Shown here one piece after another: positions 26,730 through 36,771 of a stretch of 64,000 nucleotides of DNA (positions are counted from its first letter, which is position 1; every line of letters begins with the position of its first letter). The notes under the pieces are model-generated. The model saw nothing but the letters and a program-made list of their open reading frames with translations. It did no database searches and was not told the DNA's origin. The stretch spans positions 12,100,759 through 12,164,758 of the forward strand of contig OY783204.1 of NCBI GenBank assembly GCA_963678705.1, read 5' to 3'. A program made the translations under genes and the position numbers. The stretch is from Panorpa germanica (Eukaryota; Arthropoda; Insecta; Mecoptera; Panorpidae).

Positions 26730-29700
26730 ATGGATAGCGGTTGTAAAATTATTAAGCATATGAGAAAAATTATTAAACACTTAAATAGTTCAAATTATTC
26801 AGTGGAAAAAGTGGTGTGATTATAATAAAATTAATATAAGATTATTAAATAAGTTATTAAAAAATAATAATAAGAATACCTATTCAATTGGATTTAAACG
26901 AAGTGTTGAAAGCAATATAAGTGTATTAAAATATTTTCAAACATTGTTAGAAAATAAAGAAAAAATTGGAAGAGGAACTATAAATACTTCAAAACGTAGT
27001 TATCGAATTAAATAGCAGGAAATAAATTCATCATTTAAAGGACGTGTTAGAACATGAGTGTTAATTAATTTAAGTCACATTGATCCATTACAATTTTTAA
27101 ATGATGCATTTTATATGTTTGCATCTAGAATTAAAAATGCTCTTAAAAAACATAGTGCTTTAAAAGTTAATGTAATTTTTTGTGGTGAATTTGTTTAACC
27201 ATCAGCTAAAGAAGAAGAACATATATTTGAATACAATTATTTTAATACTAAAAATAATGAAATTTTTGTATCAACAGAATTAAAACATTGGTATAAAAAA
27301 AATGTTATTGATGTTGTATTAAAATATTTAGAAACTTTTCAAGAAAATCAAAGTGGATGGGCTCTATGTAAAATAGTAAATATGATAGTAAATATAAATC
27401 AATTTGTTCCATTTTATTGTTTATCATTTATTGACTTACTAGTTGAAATAAGACGAAAAAAGGCTGTAATAAATGTTCAGAATGAAGATGATAAATGTTT
27501 TGTATGGGCAGTATTATCAGCACTTTATCCATCAAAAATTCATGGCGACAGAGTATCATCTTATAAGAAATATATAAATTGTTTTAATTTAAATGGTATT
27601 AAATTTCCAATGACGTTATCACAAGTTTTAAAATTTTAAAAACTAAATAATATATCAATCAATGTGTATATTTTAAAAAAGAGCAAGAAAACATTTGTAA
27701 CTATTCCTGTATATGTTAGTAAAATATATGAAAGTAAACATATTCATTTATTAATGATTCAAAGTGATTATGAATTTGAAGAAGAAGAAGAAGAAGAAGA
27801 GGATGAACAAGATGTTGTTGAAAGTAATAATGAGGAATGCGACAATAAAATAAAATTTCATTTTTGTTGGATAAAGAATTTATCAAGACTTGTAAGTAAT
27901 CAACTTTCAAAAACAAATTGTAAGAAATTTATATGTGATCGATGTTTACATTTCTTTAGAGATTAGTGCAAGTTTAAGGAACATTTACAAGACTGTGTTA
28001 GATTAGGACTGAGACCAGTTAAACCGATAATGCCAGTTGAAAATTCTAATATACTTGAGTTTAAAAACTTTAAGAGAAACATTAGAAATGCATGTGTTAT
28101 TTATGCAGACTTTGAAAGTATATTGGATAGTAATGTGACAAATATTGAAACCAAGGGGGTATATCAAACACATATTGCACATAGCGTTGGATATTATGTA
28201 AAATATTCATATGATGACTCTAAATCTTATTATAATAGTTATCGTGGTGAAGATTGCGTTCAGTGGTTTGTAAATGAATTAAAAGAGATTGCTTATAATG
28301 TTTAGGATATAATAAAAAATGTATTACCAATGAAAACATTGACGGCTCAACAAAAGATGGAATATTTAAATGCAATAAATTGTCATATATGTGAAAAACC
28401 GTTCCAACAAGACCGTGTTCGAGATCATTGTCATTTAACAGGAAATTATAGAGGACCAGCTCATAATGAATGTAATTTAAATTATAATGAAAGTTATGTG
28501 ATTCCAATAATTTTTCACAATTTATCATCTTATGATTCACATTTTATAATAATTGATTTAGCTACTGGAATAAGTGGAAGAACCTCTGTGCTACCAATTA
28601 ATAAATAAAAATATATTTCATTTACGAAATATGTGTATGGAACTAATATTTCATTAAGATTTATTGATTCATATCGATTTATGGCTAGTTCTTTAAATAA
28701 TTTGGCATCATATTTACCAAATAATAAACTTAAAATTTTAAAATTAGAATTTAACATGTAAAGCAATGAAAAATTTAGTATGTTAAGTAAAAAAAGTGTA
28801 TTTCCTTATGATTATATAAATTCCTGGGAAAAGTTAAATGAGACAGCTTTACCACCTCAGGATAATTTTTTTAATTTATTAAAAAAGCACAAGATGTATG
28901 GAATACATTTCATATCAAAACACTTGGTGAATATTCCGATTTGTACTTAAAAACCGATGTGTTATTACTTTGTGACATATTTGAAAATTTTCGAGATAAT
29001 TGTTTAGACAAGTATAAATTCGATCCGGTGCATTATGTTTCTGCTCCTAGCTTAGCATGGGATTCTATGTCTAAAATTACAAAAATTAAACTTGAATTGT
29101 TTACTGATATAAATATGTGGCTATTTATAGAGAAGGGTATCAGAGGTGGTATAAGTCAATGTTCAAACAGATATGCAGAGGCCAATAACAAATATATGAC
29201 TGACAAGTATAAACCTGAATTACCTTTAAAATATCTAATGTATTTTGATGTAAATAACTTATACGGTCATGCAATGTCTCAATTCCTACCATATGGAAAT
29301 ATTAAATGGTTAAACAACCAGGAAAAATTGGAAATAAGTAATACTATATGCAATTTGTCAGAAACTGGTAACAACTGGTAACTGGTAAATACTGGTAACA
29401 TTTTAGAAGTAGATTAAACTTATCCTCAAAGTTTACATAATCTCCATAAAGATTAATTGCTTTGTCCTGAGCATTGTATTGCACCAGGAAGTAAACATAA
29501 AAAACTTTTAACTACTTTATATGATAAGGGGAAATATATAATTCATTATAGTAATTTAAAGCAATGTATACATTTAGGAATGCAAGTATCAAAAATACAT
29601 CTAGTTTTAAAATTTAGTCAATCACCGTGGCTAAAAAACTATATCGATTTAAATACAGAAAAAAGAAAAATGGCTACCAATGATTTTGAAAAAAACTTGT

Positions 29701-30509
29701 ATAAATTAATGAATAATAGTGTATTTGGTAAGACAATGGAAAATGTTAGAAAACATCGTAATATAAAATTAAAAACAAATTGGGGTGGTCGATATGGAGT
29801 AAAAAGTTTAATAGCACGACCTAATTTTCATAGCCGAACAATTTTTAATAAAAATGTTGTAGCCATTAAACTTTTAAAACCTAATATTACATTTAATAAA
29901 CCTATATATGTTGGCTTTTCAATATTAGATTTATCTAAAACAGTAATGTATGATTTTCATTATAATTATATGCAAAAAGAATTTTTTAATAATAATTTAA
30001 AGTTATTATATATTGATATTGACTCGTTAATTTATGAAATTATTACATCAGATATTTATGAAATTATAAAACGCGATATAAGTAAGTTTGATACAAGTGA
30101 TTATAAAGAAAACAATCAATATAATATTCCCCGTGTAAATAAAAAGGTATTGGGTTTAATGAAGGATGAAAATACCGGTAAAATTATAACTCACTTTTTA
30201 GGACTAAGATCGAAAATGTATACAATGAAGGTTAATAATAATGACATTATAAAAAAAATAAAAGGAATAAAGACAAGTGTAGTAAGAAACCATATTTCTT
30301 TTGAAGATTATAAAAATTGTTTGAGAACTTTTAATAAAAAAAATTGTACTCAGAGAGGAATAGTTTCAAAATTGCATAATGTGTACTCCATTAAAAAAAC
30401 AAAAATTGCTTTAAGTCCTTTTTATGATAAACGGTGTTTTATAAAAGACAGTACAGATACTTTGCCTTGGGGTTTCGATAATTTAAGTGATAGCGATTTA
30501 TTGTTATAA
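26730..30509 (+). pseudogene. polB: Protein-primed family-B DNA polymerase, Polinton type, decayed
   Basis: In Polintons this enzyme replicates the element from a terminal protein. Recognisable parts in order: N-terminal region to 27380; KCFVWAVLSALYP block (about 27490-27530); C2H2-like CDRCLHFF (27940); exonuclease motif YADFES (about 28102); Cys/His block CHIC...RDHCHLTG (28384-28440); NLSSYDSHF (about 28520); polymerase motif A DVNNLYG (29247); motif B KLMNNSVFG (about 29704); motif C YIDIDS (about 30012; usual form YxDTDS). The chain is broken by in-frame stops at 27013, 27055, 27196, 27637, 27964, 28303, 28606, 28759, 29379, 29415 and 29454, and by frame changes near 26810 and 28880. 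ATG 26730 is only a possible start. The last 350 codons (29457-30509) are uninterrupted. Confidence 0.9.
29361..29400 (+). repeat. Short tandem duplication of ACTGGTAA inside the polymerase pseudogene
   Basis: ACTGGTAA occurs repeatedly within 40 bp and adds an in-frame TAA at 29379-29381. It looks like replication slippage after the gene lost function. Confidence 0.6.
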
Positions 30510-30573
30510 GTATATTTTTATTGTAAAATAAATACATATTTATAATAACCAGTAGATTTATTTATTTAAAATG

Positions 30574-31503
30574 TTATACAATATTTTTAGCATCTATCCA
30601 ACTGTTATGAGATTTATCTAAACCTAACCACTTTACAAAAACTTTTTTTCCTTTTTTCTGTAAAACTTTCTCAACTAGATATATATCTGTATATTTTGTT
30701 TTTTGTAGTTCTTGTTCGTAAAACACGCCTGCAATTGATTGGCCATGAGAATCATTAAGTAAATATGTGACTGGATTAGTTAGTTGTACTTTTGATATAG
30801 TAAATATTTCGGTACCCCAGTTAGGAGTATACCCTTTTGCAAATAATGATTTTGTTTTGCTTAAGCGAACATAATCTCCAACTTTATAGTGACCTAAACC
30901 GACCCTATTTATCCTATTTTATACATTTCCTAATAATTTTTTTTCATTTCTCATTGATACTTGAGATGGCTTTATAATAATTGTTGAATGATGAGTATTA
31001 TTATATTTGTTAAAAAGTGCATCAATGTTATTAATCCAATTATAGTTGCCTTTTATACTAAAATCTTTCCACATAGCATTCTTTTGAAATCTATTAAATC
31101 TTTCAACTATGGATGCTTTCATATTACTAAATGTACTATAATGGTTTATGTCATAATAATTTGTTACTTTTTTAAATTCAGAGTTATAAATTTTTTTTCC
31201 GTTATCTGTTTGTAAGTTTTTCGGAACCTTATTTTTATTTTTTATTAAAATATTTTCAAATGCAACAGTAACGTCTTTTGCAGATTTTGATTTTACTGGA
31301 ACTGCCCATGCATATTTAGAAAATATGTCAATTACTGTGAGTAAATACTTGTAACCTTTGTTTTCTTTTGCATTCGGAATCATTTCTACTAAATCAGCTT
31401 TCCAACTTTCATTTAGACCTTTTATGATTACATGTCTTCGCTTATAGTTTTTACGTGCAGGTTTATGTAACTCATTAATTATACCTATTTTTGTTTTGCT
31501 CAT
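30574..31503 (-). pseudogene. Polinton integrase (retroviral-type, DDE) with chromo-like C-terminus
   Basis: The product would join the element ends to target DNA. The core (30919-31503, 194 codons) shows WKADLVEM with the first Asp, LLTVIDIFSKYAW, LQTDNG with the second Asp, and IVERFNR with the Glu; 33 residues separate the second Asp and the Glu, close to the family D-35-E. After an in-frame TAA at 30919-30921 the same frame continues to 30574 with the VGDYVRLSK...GYTPNW block and a chromo-like end (VEKVLQKKGKKVFVKWLG). The stop is the only break I see. The N-terminal zinc-binding region is short or missing upstream of 31503. It converges with polB, with 64 bp between the stop codons. Confidence 0.85.
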
Positions 31504-31559
31504 ACTTATTATTATTACACAAAATTTATCAAGAACTAATATCTAAACTATGTTTTGTT

Positions 31560-31757
31560 TTAAATTCTGTAATTAGTGTTGCAATTTTTTTTATTTACTT
31601 CAATAATGTTTAGAAAGTTATTAATATAAGCATCATAAATATATTTCTCTGCAGCATTTAAACGTCTATCTATAATAATTAAATCATTTTTTGATACTGT
31701 TTCGTGCCGAGTAATTTTATTCTTATGTATGTGTACTCCAAATTTGTTAATAGTCAT
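31560..31757 (-). CDS. Small ORF of the Polinton-like element, 65 codons, unrecognised
   Basis: It begins MTINKFGVHIHKN and is rich in Lys, Asn and Ile. Orientation matches the integrase, 56 bp further along its strand. No domain is recognised. It may be the N-terminal remnant of a longer Polinton protein. Nothing else is seen in 31504-31559. Confidence 0.35.
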   Translation of the reverse strand: MTINKFGVHIHKNKITRHETVSKNDLIIIDRRLNAAEKYIYDAYINNFLNIIEVNKKNCNTNYRI

Positions 31758-31812
31758 GTTACTTACATGAGTAGTTATAAATTAATGAAAAAGAGGGAAT
31801 GTGTTTAAGTAT

Positions 31813-32133
31813 TTATATAATAATAATATTAGCTTCTTTTAATTCTTCAACTATTGAAATAATTTCATTGTCATGTGATGTATTGCCAGCCCTTTTTGAA
31901 CTTATTAGTAATTTTAGTCTATCAACTAATTCGTTTGGATTATCCCAATAAATGTAATCTTTTGGATTTTTATTGCAAGTCATATAATTTGGAATAAGAT
32001 TTTTGAAACCTTTACCAAAACGTTTATTATTTAGTAAACCAACTAAGGACGTACGCTGCAAAAGTCTTGATCGAACCTTTTGCAATTTTTTTAGAGAATA
32101 TGGTGTTGAAGACGCTGGGGCACCTAATTTTGT
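31813..32133 (-). CDS. Polinton-associated conserved small protein, 107 codons, partial or complete
   Basis: The frame is open from 32133 after a stop at 32134-32136, with no ATG at its start. It reads through SSTPYSLKKLQKVRSRL, then YWDNPNELVDRLKLL and HDNEIISIVEELKEA. I recognise the PNELVDRL...HDNEI...EEL pattern as a conserved small protein next to the integrase in insect Polinton-type elements; its function is not known to me. The upstream end coincides with the junction to the gypsy element, so the true N-terminus may be lost. Confidence 0.6.
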   Translation of the reverse strand, partial: TKLGAPASSTPYSLKKLQKVRSRLLQRTSLVGLLNNKRFGKGFKNLIPNYMTCNKNPKDYIYWDNPNELVDRLKLLISSKRAGNTSHDNEIISIVEELKEANIIII

Positions 32134-32160: not shown

Positions 32161-34539
32161 TTATATATTCGGTACCATTCGTGTTGGTGCTACTACATAG
32201 TCATTTTTATCTGTTTTTTCATTACTTTTCTTATACAGTATACCCCTATCATCTAAATAATAATCATTTTTCTCCCCATACTTAGTTTGCGTTATTAATT
32301 GTTTAATATCGGAATCACTAGCTTGTTCATTTTTAATTTGACACCAATCCCAATATGGAACTTCTTCAGCTGCTACGGCTGCAATACTCTCTGTTTCTAT
32401 TTTACTTAATGCATCGACATTACCGTGTTTTACCCCTGGCCTATAAATAATATCAAAATCGTAATCTGCTAAAGTTAAAGCCCACCGTGCTAATCTACTT
32501 TTCATTGGATCTTTCATAGTCATTAACCAACATAATGATCGGTGATCTGTTTGAATCTTAAATTTCTTACCATATAAATACGTACAAAAATGTGATAAAC
32601 TCCATTAAATCGCTAAACATTCCCTTTCTGTGGTTGAGTAATTTTTCTTACATTTATTTAATTTACGAGAAGCGTATGCGATAGGACGTTCTACTCCATC
32701 CTGAACTTGGCTTAGGATTGCTCCTAATGCGATTCCTGATGCATCTGTACCTAATATAAATTCTTGACTAAAATCTGGGTAAGCTAAAACTGGCTCAAAA
32801 CATAACGCGTTTTTTATTGCTTCAAAACTTTTGTTTTGTTCAGGTCCCTAAATAAATGTCTCATTTTTGCTTTAAGTCAGTTTTGTTAGGCTTGATGATA
32901 TTTCTGAAAAATTCTTTATAAATCGTCTATAAAATGAAGCTAACCCTATAAAAGATCGGATTTGTTTAACTGTTTTCGGACGCGGATAGTTTCTAATTAC
33001 TTCTGCTTTTTCTGGATCTGCCTTTACACCATCACTAGAAATAATATGACCAAGATATTGCGTTTCTTCATTCATAAATTCACATTTGCTAGGCTTCAAT
33101 GTCAAACTTGCTTCTCTCAAGCGATCGAAAACCTCTTTAATTCTCTAAATATGCGAATCTACATCAACGTTACTAAATATTATAATATCATCTAGGTAAA
33201 CTAAACAATGTACTCCGGTTAAGCCTGCTAACACTGCATACATAAGTGTCTGAAATGTAGCAGGAGCTGATAATAACCCAAACGGCATAACATTAAATTG
33301 AAGGTGTAAATCAGGTGTTGAAAATGCTGTTAATTCTTTAGATTTTTCGTCCATTTCAATTTGCCAAAATCCCGATGCTTAATCTAATTTGGTAAATAAA
33401 CTTGCTTTGCCTAATTTATCAAGAGTGTCTACTAAGTGTGGTAATGGAAAGTAATCTCTTTTTGTTATTGCGTTAAGACCCCTGTAATCTATGCAAACTC
33501 TAACCTTGTTTTTTCTATTTTCTGCTTTCTTATTTACAAGAACAACATTACTGAAACACATTGATGGTTCTTCTATGCCATCTTCAAGCATTTGATCTAT
33601 CTGTTCTCTCAGTACTTGTAACTGCGCGTGTGGAACTCTATATGGTTGTTTAGTTATAGGAGGAACATCTTGAATTATTATCTTATGTTTAACTATCGAG
33701 GTAGTTTTCAATTCTTGACCTTCTGTTAAGAATATGTCGCGATATTCGTAAATTAAATTTTCTATTTTACTTTGGTCTCTAGCACTTAGATGATTTAACT
33801 TTATTTTACTAAAAAGTTCCGTTATTCTCTGTGTTTTATTAATCTCTTCATTTTTATGACTTTTTTGCGTCCACTGATTTGTAACTTCATGTATAATTTT
33901 ATCTTTTTTAGCTGTTAAATTATTAAAACTTATTTCATCAAATAATTTTATATTTTCAATCTCTGTGTTTGCTTCTGTTGATTGTACAGCACCAATTAAA
34001 ATATTTTTAATTCTATGTCGGACGTGTTCTCTTAATAATTTAACTGTTTCAGTATATTCGTTATCATATGGCTCTATTATACCTATCTTAGTATTTATTG
34101 GTATATTTATAATCTTTTGCCCCTTACATATTGAATTTACACTTCTAGCTACTAATACTCCATCTGCGGTCAATTCTGGGTTAAAAATCCCATAACCTTC
34201 CTTAATGTCTTTTTGAAATGCATGAACATTCATTTTACATCGAGGCGGAAGAGTTACTTGCTCTAATAACCTAACACTACACCGATTACTACTACACGTA
34301 TGTGCGTCTGTTCGCTTTCGAATGGTTTCAGATTTTTTATTCATATTTATGTTTATTTTTTCAACTCGCTCAGCTGTGTTTATTCTTTTTAACCACTTTG
34401 TTTGTAAATTCTTCCATTTCTTTACCTGTTCTTGGACTTTAATATTCTTTCCGTCAATGTTATCTTTTAAATCTTTATCATTTTTATTTATTAAACAGTT
34501 CATATATGTTTTTTTTATCTTTTTCCGATTCGCCATCAT
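32161..34539 (-). pseudogene. pol: Ty3/gypsy reverse transcriptase - RNase H region of pol
   Basis: One continuous frame of 793 codons with five internal stops: 33379, 33145, 32872, 32848 and 32605. Residues 1-260 are a basic linker and the beta-rich post-protease segment (LPPRCKMNV, GVLVARSVN). RT follows with VRVCIDYRGLN (346-356), FTKLD with the first catalytic Asp (386, just before the first stop), FGLLSAPATFQ, the intact catalytic YLDD (33187-33198), and LKPSKCEF...YLGHIIS. RNase H shows GTDASG, ERECLAI, QTDHRSL and GNVDALS. The frame ends at 32161 shortly after the first residues of the integrase zinc region (VVAPTRMVP). ATGATG at 34539 lies inside the macro ORF, in another frame. Confidence 0.9.
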
Positions 34540-35221
34540 AGAATGTTATCTTTATTTTACATTCCGAAAATATATATTCAATCATTTTACTCACTATTTT
34601 AAAATCTAATTTATCCAGCCCACATGCTATGTATGGTAATGCAATAAATTTCACTTTATTTTCTAACATATGATCCCTTAATTTAATTATTGACGAATAT
34701 AAATCTGCGTAGAGGGGTTTCTCGTTACTCCTCTTCTTTGTTACTAAATAATATATAAAACGATTTTCATCTTTTAATATAGCTAATCCTCCCTTTTTCT
34801 GTTTCTGTTTCAAAAGCTGCTCAACTCTACCAAATCTTTCTTTAAATTCAACTGCTATTCCTTGTGACATACGTAAATCTGAGGCTATACAATGACCCAA
34901 TGCATACTTGCTAAATGCATTAAACAAATCTCCCTTATTCAAATTTATTTTGCACAACGTCTCTTTTGTTGGAAATCTACTAATTTTCCATTTTAGAAAA
35001 TCATCAAAACTTTTATAGTCATGCCCTATCTTATCAATTCGCTGAATATTTACTTCTCTTTTTTCGTCAATATTTTCCGTTTCAGTACAACCAATATTTC
35101 TACCATTTCTATTCTTTTCTACGATTTTCCCTGACTTTGATATAATACGCTTTTGCTTTCTAACGATACGATTTACATTTTCTCTAATTATATTATTTAT
35201 ATTTATCTCTCTGAAAATCAT
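34484..35221 (-). CDS. Macro domain, TARG1/OARD1-like ADP-ribosyl hydrolase, inside a gypsy element
   Basis: 245 codons from ATG, no internal stop. Residues 1-89 are basic and unrecognised. Residues 90-230 match the TARG1/OARD1 class of macro domains: KGDLF (96-100), GHCIASDLRMSQGIAVEFK (109-127), FIYYLVTKKR (155-164), LPYIACGLD (195-203) and a C-terminal KITFYDG. In human TARG1 the catalytic residues are Lys84 (ITKKR) and Asp125 (CGLD); the equivalents here are Lys162 and Asp203. Known members remove mono-ADP-ribose from Glu/Asp side chains and from related acylated ADP-ribose. It overlaps the end of the protease frame by 29 bp and the start of the RT frame by 56 bp, each in a different frame. 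Capture from a host gene is inference. Activity in this copy is untested. Confidence 0.88.
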   Translation of the reverse strand: MIFREININNIIRENVNRIVRKQKRIISKSGKIVEKNRNGRNIGCTETENIDEKREVNIQRIDKIGHDYKSFDDFLKWKISRFPTKETLCKINLNKGDLFNAFSKYALGHCIASDLRMSQGIAVEFKERFGRVEQLLKQKQKKGGLAILKDENRFIYYLVTKKRSNEKPLYADLYSSIIKLRDHMLENKVKFIALPYIACGLDKLDFKIVSKMIEYIFSECKIKITFYDGESEKDKKNIYELFNK

Positions 35222-35675
35222 GTACAGTATTACGATTAATGTCGTAAATAACGTTTCTATATATTAAAATATCCTTTCCAAAGTCTTCAATTATCCCAAA
35301 TTCACGAAGAAAGTCTAACCCAATTATCCCTGTCGAATTTTCCATATTTTCTACAATTTCAAAATAAAAAGTCACATTATCCCCAAATAAATCTAACTTT
35401 AATTTGCTTTTACCAAGTGTATGTATTTTATTATTTTGTGCATCTCGCAAAATATTTTGCGATTCTGTAATTTTGTTCGTTTTTTAACATTCTCTAGTTA
35501 GTAGGCTGGCGCCTGCACCACTATCTATAAGAACGTTGCAATTTTGACCATTAATTATTAAATTAGGAAACCATTGATTATCATGAAATGCCGGTACATA
35601 CAGAGGTGTAAGATTACCCTTTTTACTTATTGAATGGCTTCTACGTCTCGGGTAGTTAGTGAAGCCATCAATTCG
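35193..35675 (-). pseudogene. pol: Ty3/gypsy aspartic protease region of pol
   Basis: The frame is entered by -1 frameshift from gag at 35675-35681 and is open through VLIDSGAGASLL, the retropepsin active-site loop (D-S/T-G). A TAA at 35487-35489 interrupts it. The same frame then gives FYFEIVENM...GIIGLDFLREFG, the second conserved retropepsin block, and ends at 35193. Without the one stop the region would make a full-length protease of normal size. The downstream macro ORF starts within its last 29 bp. Confidence 0.85.
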
Positions 35676-35681
35676 TTTAAA
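35615..35681 (-). promoter_or_regulatory. gag-pol -1 ribosomal frameshift signal with stem-loop or pseudoknot
   Basis: TTTAAAC at 35681-35675 is in phase T TTA AAC with gag. After a 6-nt spacer, ATGGCTTC (35668-35661) pairs perfectly with GAAGCCAT (35641-35634). The loop holds TACCC (35654-35650), complementary to GGGTA (35619-35615) just after the gag stop (TAA 35629-35627), so an H-type pseudoknot is possible. The -1 frame is open into the protease. Structures were folded by eye. Confidence 0.8.
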
Positions 35682-36771
35682 TTATCTTCATAATTATTGG
35701 ACGCGCGTAAATTTCTTTCTTCAACTTCGCTTGGCTTATTTTCGATGCTTCGAATATTCCTATTACTTTGGAAAGTAACTTGTCGCTGATTTCTCGCAGG
35801 ACTACGGCTATCATTATACACTTGCAGGACTCTTACTCTCCCTAATCGGTCATTACTTTGCTTACGGTTTTCATACCTACTTGAACTGCGATTTCTTTGA
35901 AATCGATCTCTTTCGTCCTGAACGGGACGTCTCTCTGAAAATGTCCTAATCTGTTACAATTGTAGCACCTTACTCCATCTCTTTGACTATTATTAAACCT
36001 TCGGCTTTGTGAACCGCTACGCGAGTTGCTAGGTCGCATAAACGATTGATTATTTTGAGATGCGCGATTTACATAATAGTGGTCGGCTCTGTTTATTCGG
36101 TTAGTTCCACCTGTAGTAATCTCTGCTACTTAGCCTTGCTTCGATGAGATTAAATCATCGGTTTCTACCCATTCCGCAATTTCAACGGCGTTATTAAAAC
36201 TCTTGGGATCCGCGGCCAAAATAAACTTAGAATATCTCTGCGATATCCCTTCTTTAAACCTTTTTAAAACGGCTACTTGTAACTCAACTGAAAGCTTCTT
36301 TTCTTGCTGTTTATCAGTTGCTTCTGGTACACAATTTGACCCTAATGCCCATAACCTTTGTGAAAATTCATAAACAGTCTCGCCATGTCTTTGTTTACAA
36401 CCCCCGAACTCAATTTCTGCTTGTCTCAGAGCAGATGGCCCTTTTCTGCTGTATCTAAACAATAATGCATTACGAATACTCATATAACTACGGTTCTCAC
36501 TTTGAACCTTCGAATTAGACTAAAGATATTCAGCTACATCAAGCGACACTTTTGCAAATACGGTAACTGATTGCACCTTATCGGTCCAATCCAACAATTC
36601 TGCCATTTGATCCACCGCATTTAAAAATGTTGCTATGCTACCTGTACCGTCAAAGAATGGTATATAATTTAATCCTTTTAATTTAGGAATTTCTGGGGCA
36701 ATATCTACGTTTGTTTCATTAGTTGTCTTTTTAACTATTTGGAATAAACTTTCAATCAAATAAAAACCTTA
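35627..36771 (-). pseudogene. gag: Ty3/gypsy gag with zinc knuckle, decayed
   Basis: Gag forms the particle and packages the RNA. The frame opens after a stop at about 36772-36774 without an ATG, so the start is unclear. It shows a capsid-like segment, including the ALRQAEIEFGGCKQRHGETV region and EFSQRLWALG (about 36430-36340), broken by stops at 36520 and 36130. A zinc knuckle CYNCNRLGHFQRD (about 35975-35938) has three of four CCHC ligands; the fourth position is Val. Next to it, at about 35930, the reading frame changes. The new frame runs through a Ser/Arg/Asn-rich tail to TAA 35627-35629. A small deletion at the knuckle would explain both the lost Cys and the shift. Confidence 0.8.

What the first reader, a model, noticed from the sequence alone, without database searches (positions are those of the whole stretch)
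34484..35221. TARG1-like macro domain embedded in the pol region of a Ty3/gypsy retrotransposon
Seen: an open 245-codon ORF between protease and RT, with all main macro-domain motifs and both residues equivalent to the catalytic Lys and Asp of human TARG1/OARD1. Known: macro domains are carried by several RNA viruses and there reverse ADP-ribosylation, part of antiviral defence; retroviruses carry dUTPase in comparable accessory positions. Inferred: this retroelement lineage captured a host hydrolase, perhaps to counter PARP-based control. I do not know of an established gypsy lineage with this domain, but cannot search.
Basis: partly seen in the sequence, partly recalled or inferred. Interest (0 to 1): 0.92.

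Follow-up and report, generated by a model that had tools for sequence, protein, structure and literature searches.

The report
ADP-ribose-removing enzyme inside jumping genes
Several kinds of virus-like jumping genes (Ty3/gypsy retrotransposons) in this genome carry, inside their own replication protein, a relative of TARG1, a cell enzyme that removes ADP-ribose tags, which suggests they may use it to undo a mark set by the host.

Summary
On the minus strand, 34484-35263 encodes a macro domain 48% identical to human TARG1 (E about 1e-37) with the catalytic Lys and Asp kept; the AlphaFold model fits TARG1 crystal chains at 0.8-0.9 Å.

It is not an accident of one copy. Of 20 loci of the same family (A) fetched from the window's own genome, mostly chosen for long frames, 8 have one frame of 1636-1638 codons running protease-macro-RT-RNase H-integrase. 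Lys and Asp are kept in 26 of 26 places read. Macro dN/dS is 0.32 (24 copies). Both LTR pairs tested are identical, so the family moved recently.

Four other gypsy families carry the domain at a mapped place: C between protease and RT with the dyad lost; B, D and F between RNase H and integrase, dyad kept in B and D. D also has a baculovirus-F-like envelope match. The carriers are not one RT clade, so repeated capture or exchange is needed.

Macro domains in fish retroviruses are in print; ten literature searches gave me none for Ty3/gypsy. Enzyme activity and a role against host PARPs are inferred. The window's own copy is broken.

The parts
34484..35263 (-). Macro-domain frame of pol (259 open codons; 245 from the ATG at 35221)
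34538..34951 (-). TARG1-type macro domain (frame residues 105-242)
34736..34738 (-). Lys aligned with TARG1 K84 (frame residue 176)
34613..34615 (-). Asp aligned with TARG1 D125 (frame residue 217)
   Evidence: D125 recalled
35193..35681 (-). Protease remains in two open pieces, broken by a stop; upstream piece holds the DSGAG-type motif
   Evidence: motif label recalled; the counterpart in copy L044 matches Pfam protease models
35627..36768 (-). Gag remains with a CCHC zinc knuckle, broken by stops and frame changes
33690..34483 (-). Spacer between macro and RT, no Pfam family above cut-off
32872..33690 (-). Reverse transcriptase, Ty3-like, with in-frame stops
32161..32847 (-). RNase H region, broken by a stop; the element is cut off after it and has no integrase here

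Best explanation
A family of Ty3/gypsy elements carries a TARG1-type ADP-ribosylhydrolase as an extra module of Pol, between protease and RT. It is made in frame as part of Pol, presumably released by the element's own protease, carried in the particle with RT and integrase, and removes ADP-ribose that host transferases attach to element proteins (Asp/Glu links) or to the cDNA, so that reverse transcription or integration can go on. Shown here: the domain, its predicted fold and dyad, its place in one open frame with protease and integrase, its retention in recently moved copies, signs of purifying selection, and its recurrence in other gypsy families at a second junction of pol. Inferred: cleavage, packaging, enzyme activity, substrate, and benefit to the element.
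For: TARG1 match about 1e-37, 48% identity; model pLDDT 83.3, eight best PDB matches all TARG1. Eight of 20 fetched A loci have one frame of 1636-1638 codons with the macro in it, a ninth 1571; domain order by Pfam on L044. LTR pairs of both copies tested identical over 973 and 828 bp. Dyad kept in 27 of 27 A rows = 26 places, 8 of 8 B rows and 3 of 3 D rows. dN/dS of the macro: A 0.32 (0.15-0.69, 24 copies), B 0.24 (0.14-0.41, 10 copies). Recurrence between RNase H and integrase in B, D and F. Host PARP-domain matches present. TARG1 acts on Glu/Asp-linked ADP-ribose and on thymidine-linked ADP-ribose in DNA (PMC10238386 section 7; PMC8501950 passages).
Against: No activity, expression or phenotype data. 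Family C (7 of 7 rows) and F (1 row) have lost dyad residues, so catalysis is not always kept. L079 has lost or never had the domain and is still present in the genome. In the 9 A copies with the longest frames the dN/dS interval reaches 1 (0.34, 0.11-1.21), and the macro is less constrained than RT (0.14), RNase H (0.06) and integrase (0.07), about like the spacer (0.37). The window's copy is broken. Insects are said to lack most vertebrate PARPs (PMC10221186 passage), if the host is an insect.
Confidence: 0.6

Rival explanations
1. The domain is an ADP-ribose reader or a structural piece of Pol, for example tethering the particle or integrase to ADP-ribosylated chromatin; hydrolysis is incidental and is lost without cost in some families.
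For: C and F keep a macro-like domain in open pol frames with dyad residues replaced. The place next to integrase in B, D and F fits a tether.
Against: Dyad kept in all A, B and D rows read. In C the dN/dS is 0.62 with an interval reaching past 1 (0.24-2.49, 7 copies), so constraint on the dyad-less domain is not shown, and the loop before the dyad is shortened.
Confidence: 0.22
2. The hydrolase serves the element's nucleic acids or another ADP-ribose compound independently of PARP defence, for example cleaning ADP-ribose from cDNA ends or bases.
For: TARG1 removes thymidine-linked ADP-ribose and is said to share removal from terminal phosphates of nucleic acids with other hydrolases (PMC8501950 passages).
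Against: Nothing here separates the substrates; PARP-domain genes are present.
Confidence: 0.1
3. A passenger: a host gene or gene fragment that landed by chance in this one copy.
For: In the window the macro frame is out of frame with both protease and RT, and the copy is broken.
Against: Same domain at the same place, in frame with pol, in other copies; no flanking direct repeat of 9 or more bases and no A tail beyond an A8 run; purifying selection in A and B.
Confidence: 0.02

Closest known systems
Human TARG1 / OARD1 / C6orf130 (cellular terminal ADP-ribose protein glycohydrolase)
   Same: Fold (4j5s, TM 0.97 by target length, rmsd 0.9 Å), 48% identity and both dyad residues
   Different: TARG1 is a small single-domain protein; here the domain is a module in retrotransposon Pol with an added N-terminal stretch of about 100 residues
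Macro domain ORFs of fish epsilon-like endogenous retroviruses (Basta et al. 2009, known to me only through the review PMC4977317, passages; primary paper not held)
   Same: A retroelement that carries a macro domain of presumed cellular origin
   Different: There: Retroviridae and additional ORFs. Here: Ty3/gypsy and inside the pol frame, at two different junctions. Whether the fish domains are TARG1-type could not be checked
Macro domains of alphaviruses and coronaviruses
   Same: Macro fold in a viral polyprotein
   Different: Far in sequence: 11-14% identity, TM 0.53-0.59 by query length for the rows listed
Phage TARG1-like proteins (LP65, G, LpeD, LC76P1, Fnu1)
   Same: Both dyad columns shared
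   Different: Separate small genes, 30-34% identical to the window domain
dUTPase carried in pol of some retroviruses (recalled)
   Same: A captured cellular enzyme placed at a junction of pol
   Different: Another enzyme; comparison from memory, not tested

Membership tests
TARG1-type macro domain | Sequence closest to TARG1 among solved structures | tested here: met
   five TARG1 chains at about 1e-37, next 0.22
TARG1-type macro domain | Macro fold matching TARG1 | tested here: met
TARG1-type macro domain | Catalytic Lys and Asp | tested here: met
   window and A, B, D rows: met. C and F: not met
TARG1-type macro domain | Removes ADP-ribose | not testable with these tools
   needs an assay
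Pfam PF01661 Macro | Score at or above the gathering cut-off | tested here: not met
   18.1 of 22 bits, 19 bits for the shorter piece
Ty3/gypsy element | RT related to Ty3 | tested here: met
   window RT: Ty3 RT 2.9e-10; L044: RVT_1, RNase H
Ty3/gypsy element | Order protease-RT-RNase H-integrase | tested here: met
   in copy L044; the window's copy lacks integrase
Ty3/gypsy element | Flanking LTRs | tested here: met
   in the two A copies tested; no LTR pair found in the window's island
Macro-bearing fish endogenous retroviruses | Belongs to Retroviridae (epsilon-like) | tested here: inconclusive
   RT matches Ty3 best among solved structures; no retroviral RT set was compared in a tree

The most novel reading that the evidence does not exclude
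Gypsy elements of this host lineage have taken up a TARG1-type hydrolase as a Pol subunit more than once, at the protease-RT and the RNase H-integrase junctions, and are in a running conflict with host ADP-ribosylation: active-looking domains in A, B and D, worn-out ones in C and F, a relic in L080, none in L079, and several PARP-domain genes on one host chromosome-sized contig. ADP-ribosylation would then be a defence against retrotransposons in animals.
Probability: 0.35. Interest if true: 0.92.

Novelty: new variant of a known kind. Interest (0 to 1): 0.78.

Why it matters
A TARG1-type domain fixed inside the Pol of recently moving gypsy families points to ADP-ribosylation as a mark that retrotransposons may have to deal with. 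Families with intact, decayed and absent macro domains sit side by side in one genome, so the question can be tested directly. The two places used in pol also suggest that junctions of the polyprotein are preferred landing places for captured enzymes.

Tried and rejected
Chance frame: rejected by shuffles and the TARG1 match. One-copy insertion: rejected by other copies; flanks searched for direct repeats of 9 or more bases, none found, only an A8 run at 34516. Two 162-codon frames on C2 that I first took for host TARG1 genes (L062, L063) are broken B elements, about 96% identical to L064 over their whole length. A first macro tree held the window row in a wrong frame and a long relic row; not used. 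Labels 'nomacro' for L077 and L078 were premature: only the part before RT had been read. The lineage of L077 (F) has a macro before integrase. L078 has a wide RNase H-integrase gap with a very weak profile match (7-8 bits): undecided. Folding without an alignment failed (pLDDT 43.7). Viral contigs gave no close relative of the macro frame, the RT stretch or the B macro; with alignments it gave viral homologues, and no RT match lay beside them (tblastn over the loci then held, hit only in L010). Genome contigs gave none. Host identity by telomere repeat did not complete. Literature: ten searches. No listing or passage that I saw describes a macro domain in a Ty3/gypsy element. One search listed 20 of 46 papers and one search listed 20 of 61, so unlisted ones were not seen; six papers were opened (PMC10221186, PMC10238386, PMC8501950, PMC4245714, PMC4977317, PMC11642819), for passages or single sections only.

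Full report
What is there. The finding's coordinates hold an open frame on the minus strand: 259 open codons at 34484-35263, 245 from the first ATG at 35221. Shuffles that keep dinucleotides never gave more than 178 open codons in 1000 trials. Residues 105-242 match human TARG1 at about 1e-37, 48% identity. Pfam Macro stays below its cut-off (18.1 of 22 bits); NCBIfam matches DarG at 5e-10, far below that model's cut-off (39.2 of 250 bits). A model of 196 residues built on the window sequence and 19 viral homologues (A3) has pLDDT 83.3 and pTM 0.78. Its eight best PDB matches are all TARG1, 4j5s first (TM 0.97 by target length, rmsd 0.9 Å). K176 and D217 align with TARG1 K84 and D125; both columns are invariant among the window, human TARG1 and five phage proteins.

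Surroundings. On the same strand lie gag remains with a CCHC knuckle, protease pieces, the macro frame, a spacer, RT and RNase H. The copy is broken: stops in gag, protease, RT and RNase H; the macro frame is out of step with protease and RT; integrase is missing where a Maverick-like piece begins (31813-32133; label recalled, no Pfam match). The island of about 13 kb lies in a satellite array with a unit of about 1.59 kb.

Other copies. The window is C1:12100759-12164758 of a 464 Mb assembly. A search with the macro frame looked at 649 candidates, scored 147 and reported 147 matches, so counts are lower bounds. Family A (mostly 87-96% identical) was sampled with 20 loci of 9.8 kb, picked mostly for long frames plus two old copies, so they are not a random sample. 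Eight have one frame of 1636-1638 codons and one has 1571, with the macro in frame; the other 11 have shorter frames. Pfam on pieces of L044 gives protease, then RVT_1, RNase H, Integrase_H2C2, rve and Integrase_p58_C, the macro lying between protease and RVT_1. In both copies whose 3' side was fetched the LTR pair is identical (973 and 828 bp). The dyad is kept in 27 of 27 A rows read, which are 26 places including the window's (L035 and L057 are one place); L061 has 2 stops in the macro part, the other rows none. dN/dS of the macro is 0.32 (bootstrap over codons 0.15-0.69) in 24 copies, the two old copies L060 and L061 left out. In the 9 copies with the longest frames alone it is 0.34 with an interval that reaches past 1 (0.11-1.21). 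In 18 copies protease has 0.36, linker 0.45, macro 0.30, spacer 0.37, RT 0.14, RNase H 0.06, integrase 0.07 (15-18 copies by region). So the macro is constrained, but less than RT and integrase.

More families in the same genome. B (L064): RVT_1 end, RNase H, macro, Integrase_H2C2, rve, so the macro lies between RNase H and integrase; protease and RVT_1 lie upstream (L082). One search lists 18 B rows with frames of 1389 codons. The dyad is kept in 8 of 8 rows; dN/dS 0.24 (0.14-0.41, 10 copies). C (L067): protease, macro, RVT_1, RNase H as in A, but Lys and Asp are replaced in 7 of 7 rows; dN/dS 0.62 (0.24-2.49, 7 copies). D (L068): RVT_1, RNase H, macro, dyad kept in 3 of 3 rows, two of them identical; further downstream an integrase end, then Baculo_F and Gypsy env matches (L076), so D looks like an envelope-bearing, errantivirus-like element, with several frame changes in this copy. 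F (L097), beside an RT row with a frame of 1652 codons: macro profile 67 bits, directly before Integrase_H2C2; Lys kept, Asp gone (one copy read). E (L098, 118 bits) and D2 (L099, 135 bits) keep Lys and Asp, E with a changed Gly loop, and join D in the macro tree (100/99); their domain neighbours were not read.

Gain and loss. In RT trees A, C, L079 and L080 form one group (95/95 with 11 rows; 94/92 with 9 rows). L080 has a macro relic between protease and RT (16-20 bits; tblastn 1e-7). L079, 88% identical to it in RT, has none before RT and none between RNase H and integrase. The simplest reading is one old gain at the protease-RT junction, then decay and loss. B groups with a moth gypsy element, filed as a Wolbachia plasmid record (L010), in which no macro was found: 99/98. 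D groups with L078 (95/96; 93/92). Holding A with B is rejected (p-AU 3.3e-5), and so is holding A, B, C, D, F and L080 against L078, L079 and the moth element (3.7e-45); these groups were named after the first tree was seen, and L078 may hold a relic. Repeated capture, or exchange of the domain between elements, is needed. With C left out the A and B macros join at 91/95, which speaks for a common source of those two.

Source. Among viral homologues the window domain joins human TARG1 (98/94); with all families the deep branches are open. No stand-alone host TARG1 gene was recognised: the search with human TARG1 scored 150 of 579 candidates and put B copies first; a gene split by introns could hide among the partial matches, which I did not read. 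TARG1 is sporadic in invertebrates (PMC4245714, section 15 read).

How it may work. See Best explanation. PARP-domain matches in this genome: 10, of which three adjacent pieces on C9 and five on C21. In the paper's assays human TARG1 did not remove ADP-ribose from a Ser-modified peptide, and the Drosophila TARG homologues did not remove Ser-linked mono-ADP-ribose; TARG1 is called specific for Glu/Asp links (PMC10238386, section 7 read). TARG1 also removes thymidine-linked ADP-ribose from DNA (PMC8501950, passages). Protein and cDNA are both possible substrates.

What is known. A review says that some epsilon-like retroviral sequences of ray-finned fish carry extra ORFs for CNPase or macro domain proteins (PMC4977317, passages; primary paper not held). 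My ten searches gave no paper on a macro domain in Ty3/gypsy (see Tried and rejected for their limits). Repbase, protein databases and most subscription journals were not searched, so it may have been noted elsewhere. I therefore rate it a new variant of a known kind.

Noticed in passing
window 1-25602 and 38643-64000: Satellite array with a unit of about 1.59 kb, copies mostly 94-97% identical, interrupted by the 13 kb island that holds the element.
   Followed up: partly
window 29457-32133: Maverick/Polinton-like pieces next to the gypsy copy: integrase and chromodomain matches on the minus strand and a polymerase-like frame on the plus strand (label recalled, no Pfam match).
   Followed up: no
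G000 contig C21: Five of the 10 PARP-domain matches lie on C21, four of them in frames of 361-521 codons without internal stops, which hints at an expansion of PARP genes.
   Followed up: no
L076 (G000:C2:3410900-3413500): Macro-bearing family D has Baculo_F and Gypsy env matches after integrase.
   Followed up: partly
L010 (NZ_CP087956.1): A record filed as a Wolbachia plasmid from a moth holds protease, RT and RNase H of a gypsy-type element, so it may be host DNA.
   Followed up: partly
L074 1-1368 with the end of L044: Family A has about 2.1 kb between the end of pol and the 3' LTR; in the L074 part before the LTR no frame of 90 codons or more was found.
   Followed up: no
L095 (G000:C7:16737250-16738250): The L078 family has a wide gap between RNase H and integrase with a very weak macro match, perhaps a relic.
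   Followed up: no
BFVD A0A8E0KJF2: The best viral structure match is a putative VP8 of Kadipiro virus, 36% identity, so TARG1-type domains may also occur in a quite different virus.
   Followed up: no
L023, L024, L025: Large viral contigs with two TARG1-like frames about 5.6 kb apart.
   Followed up: no
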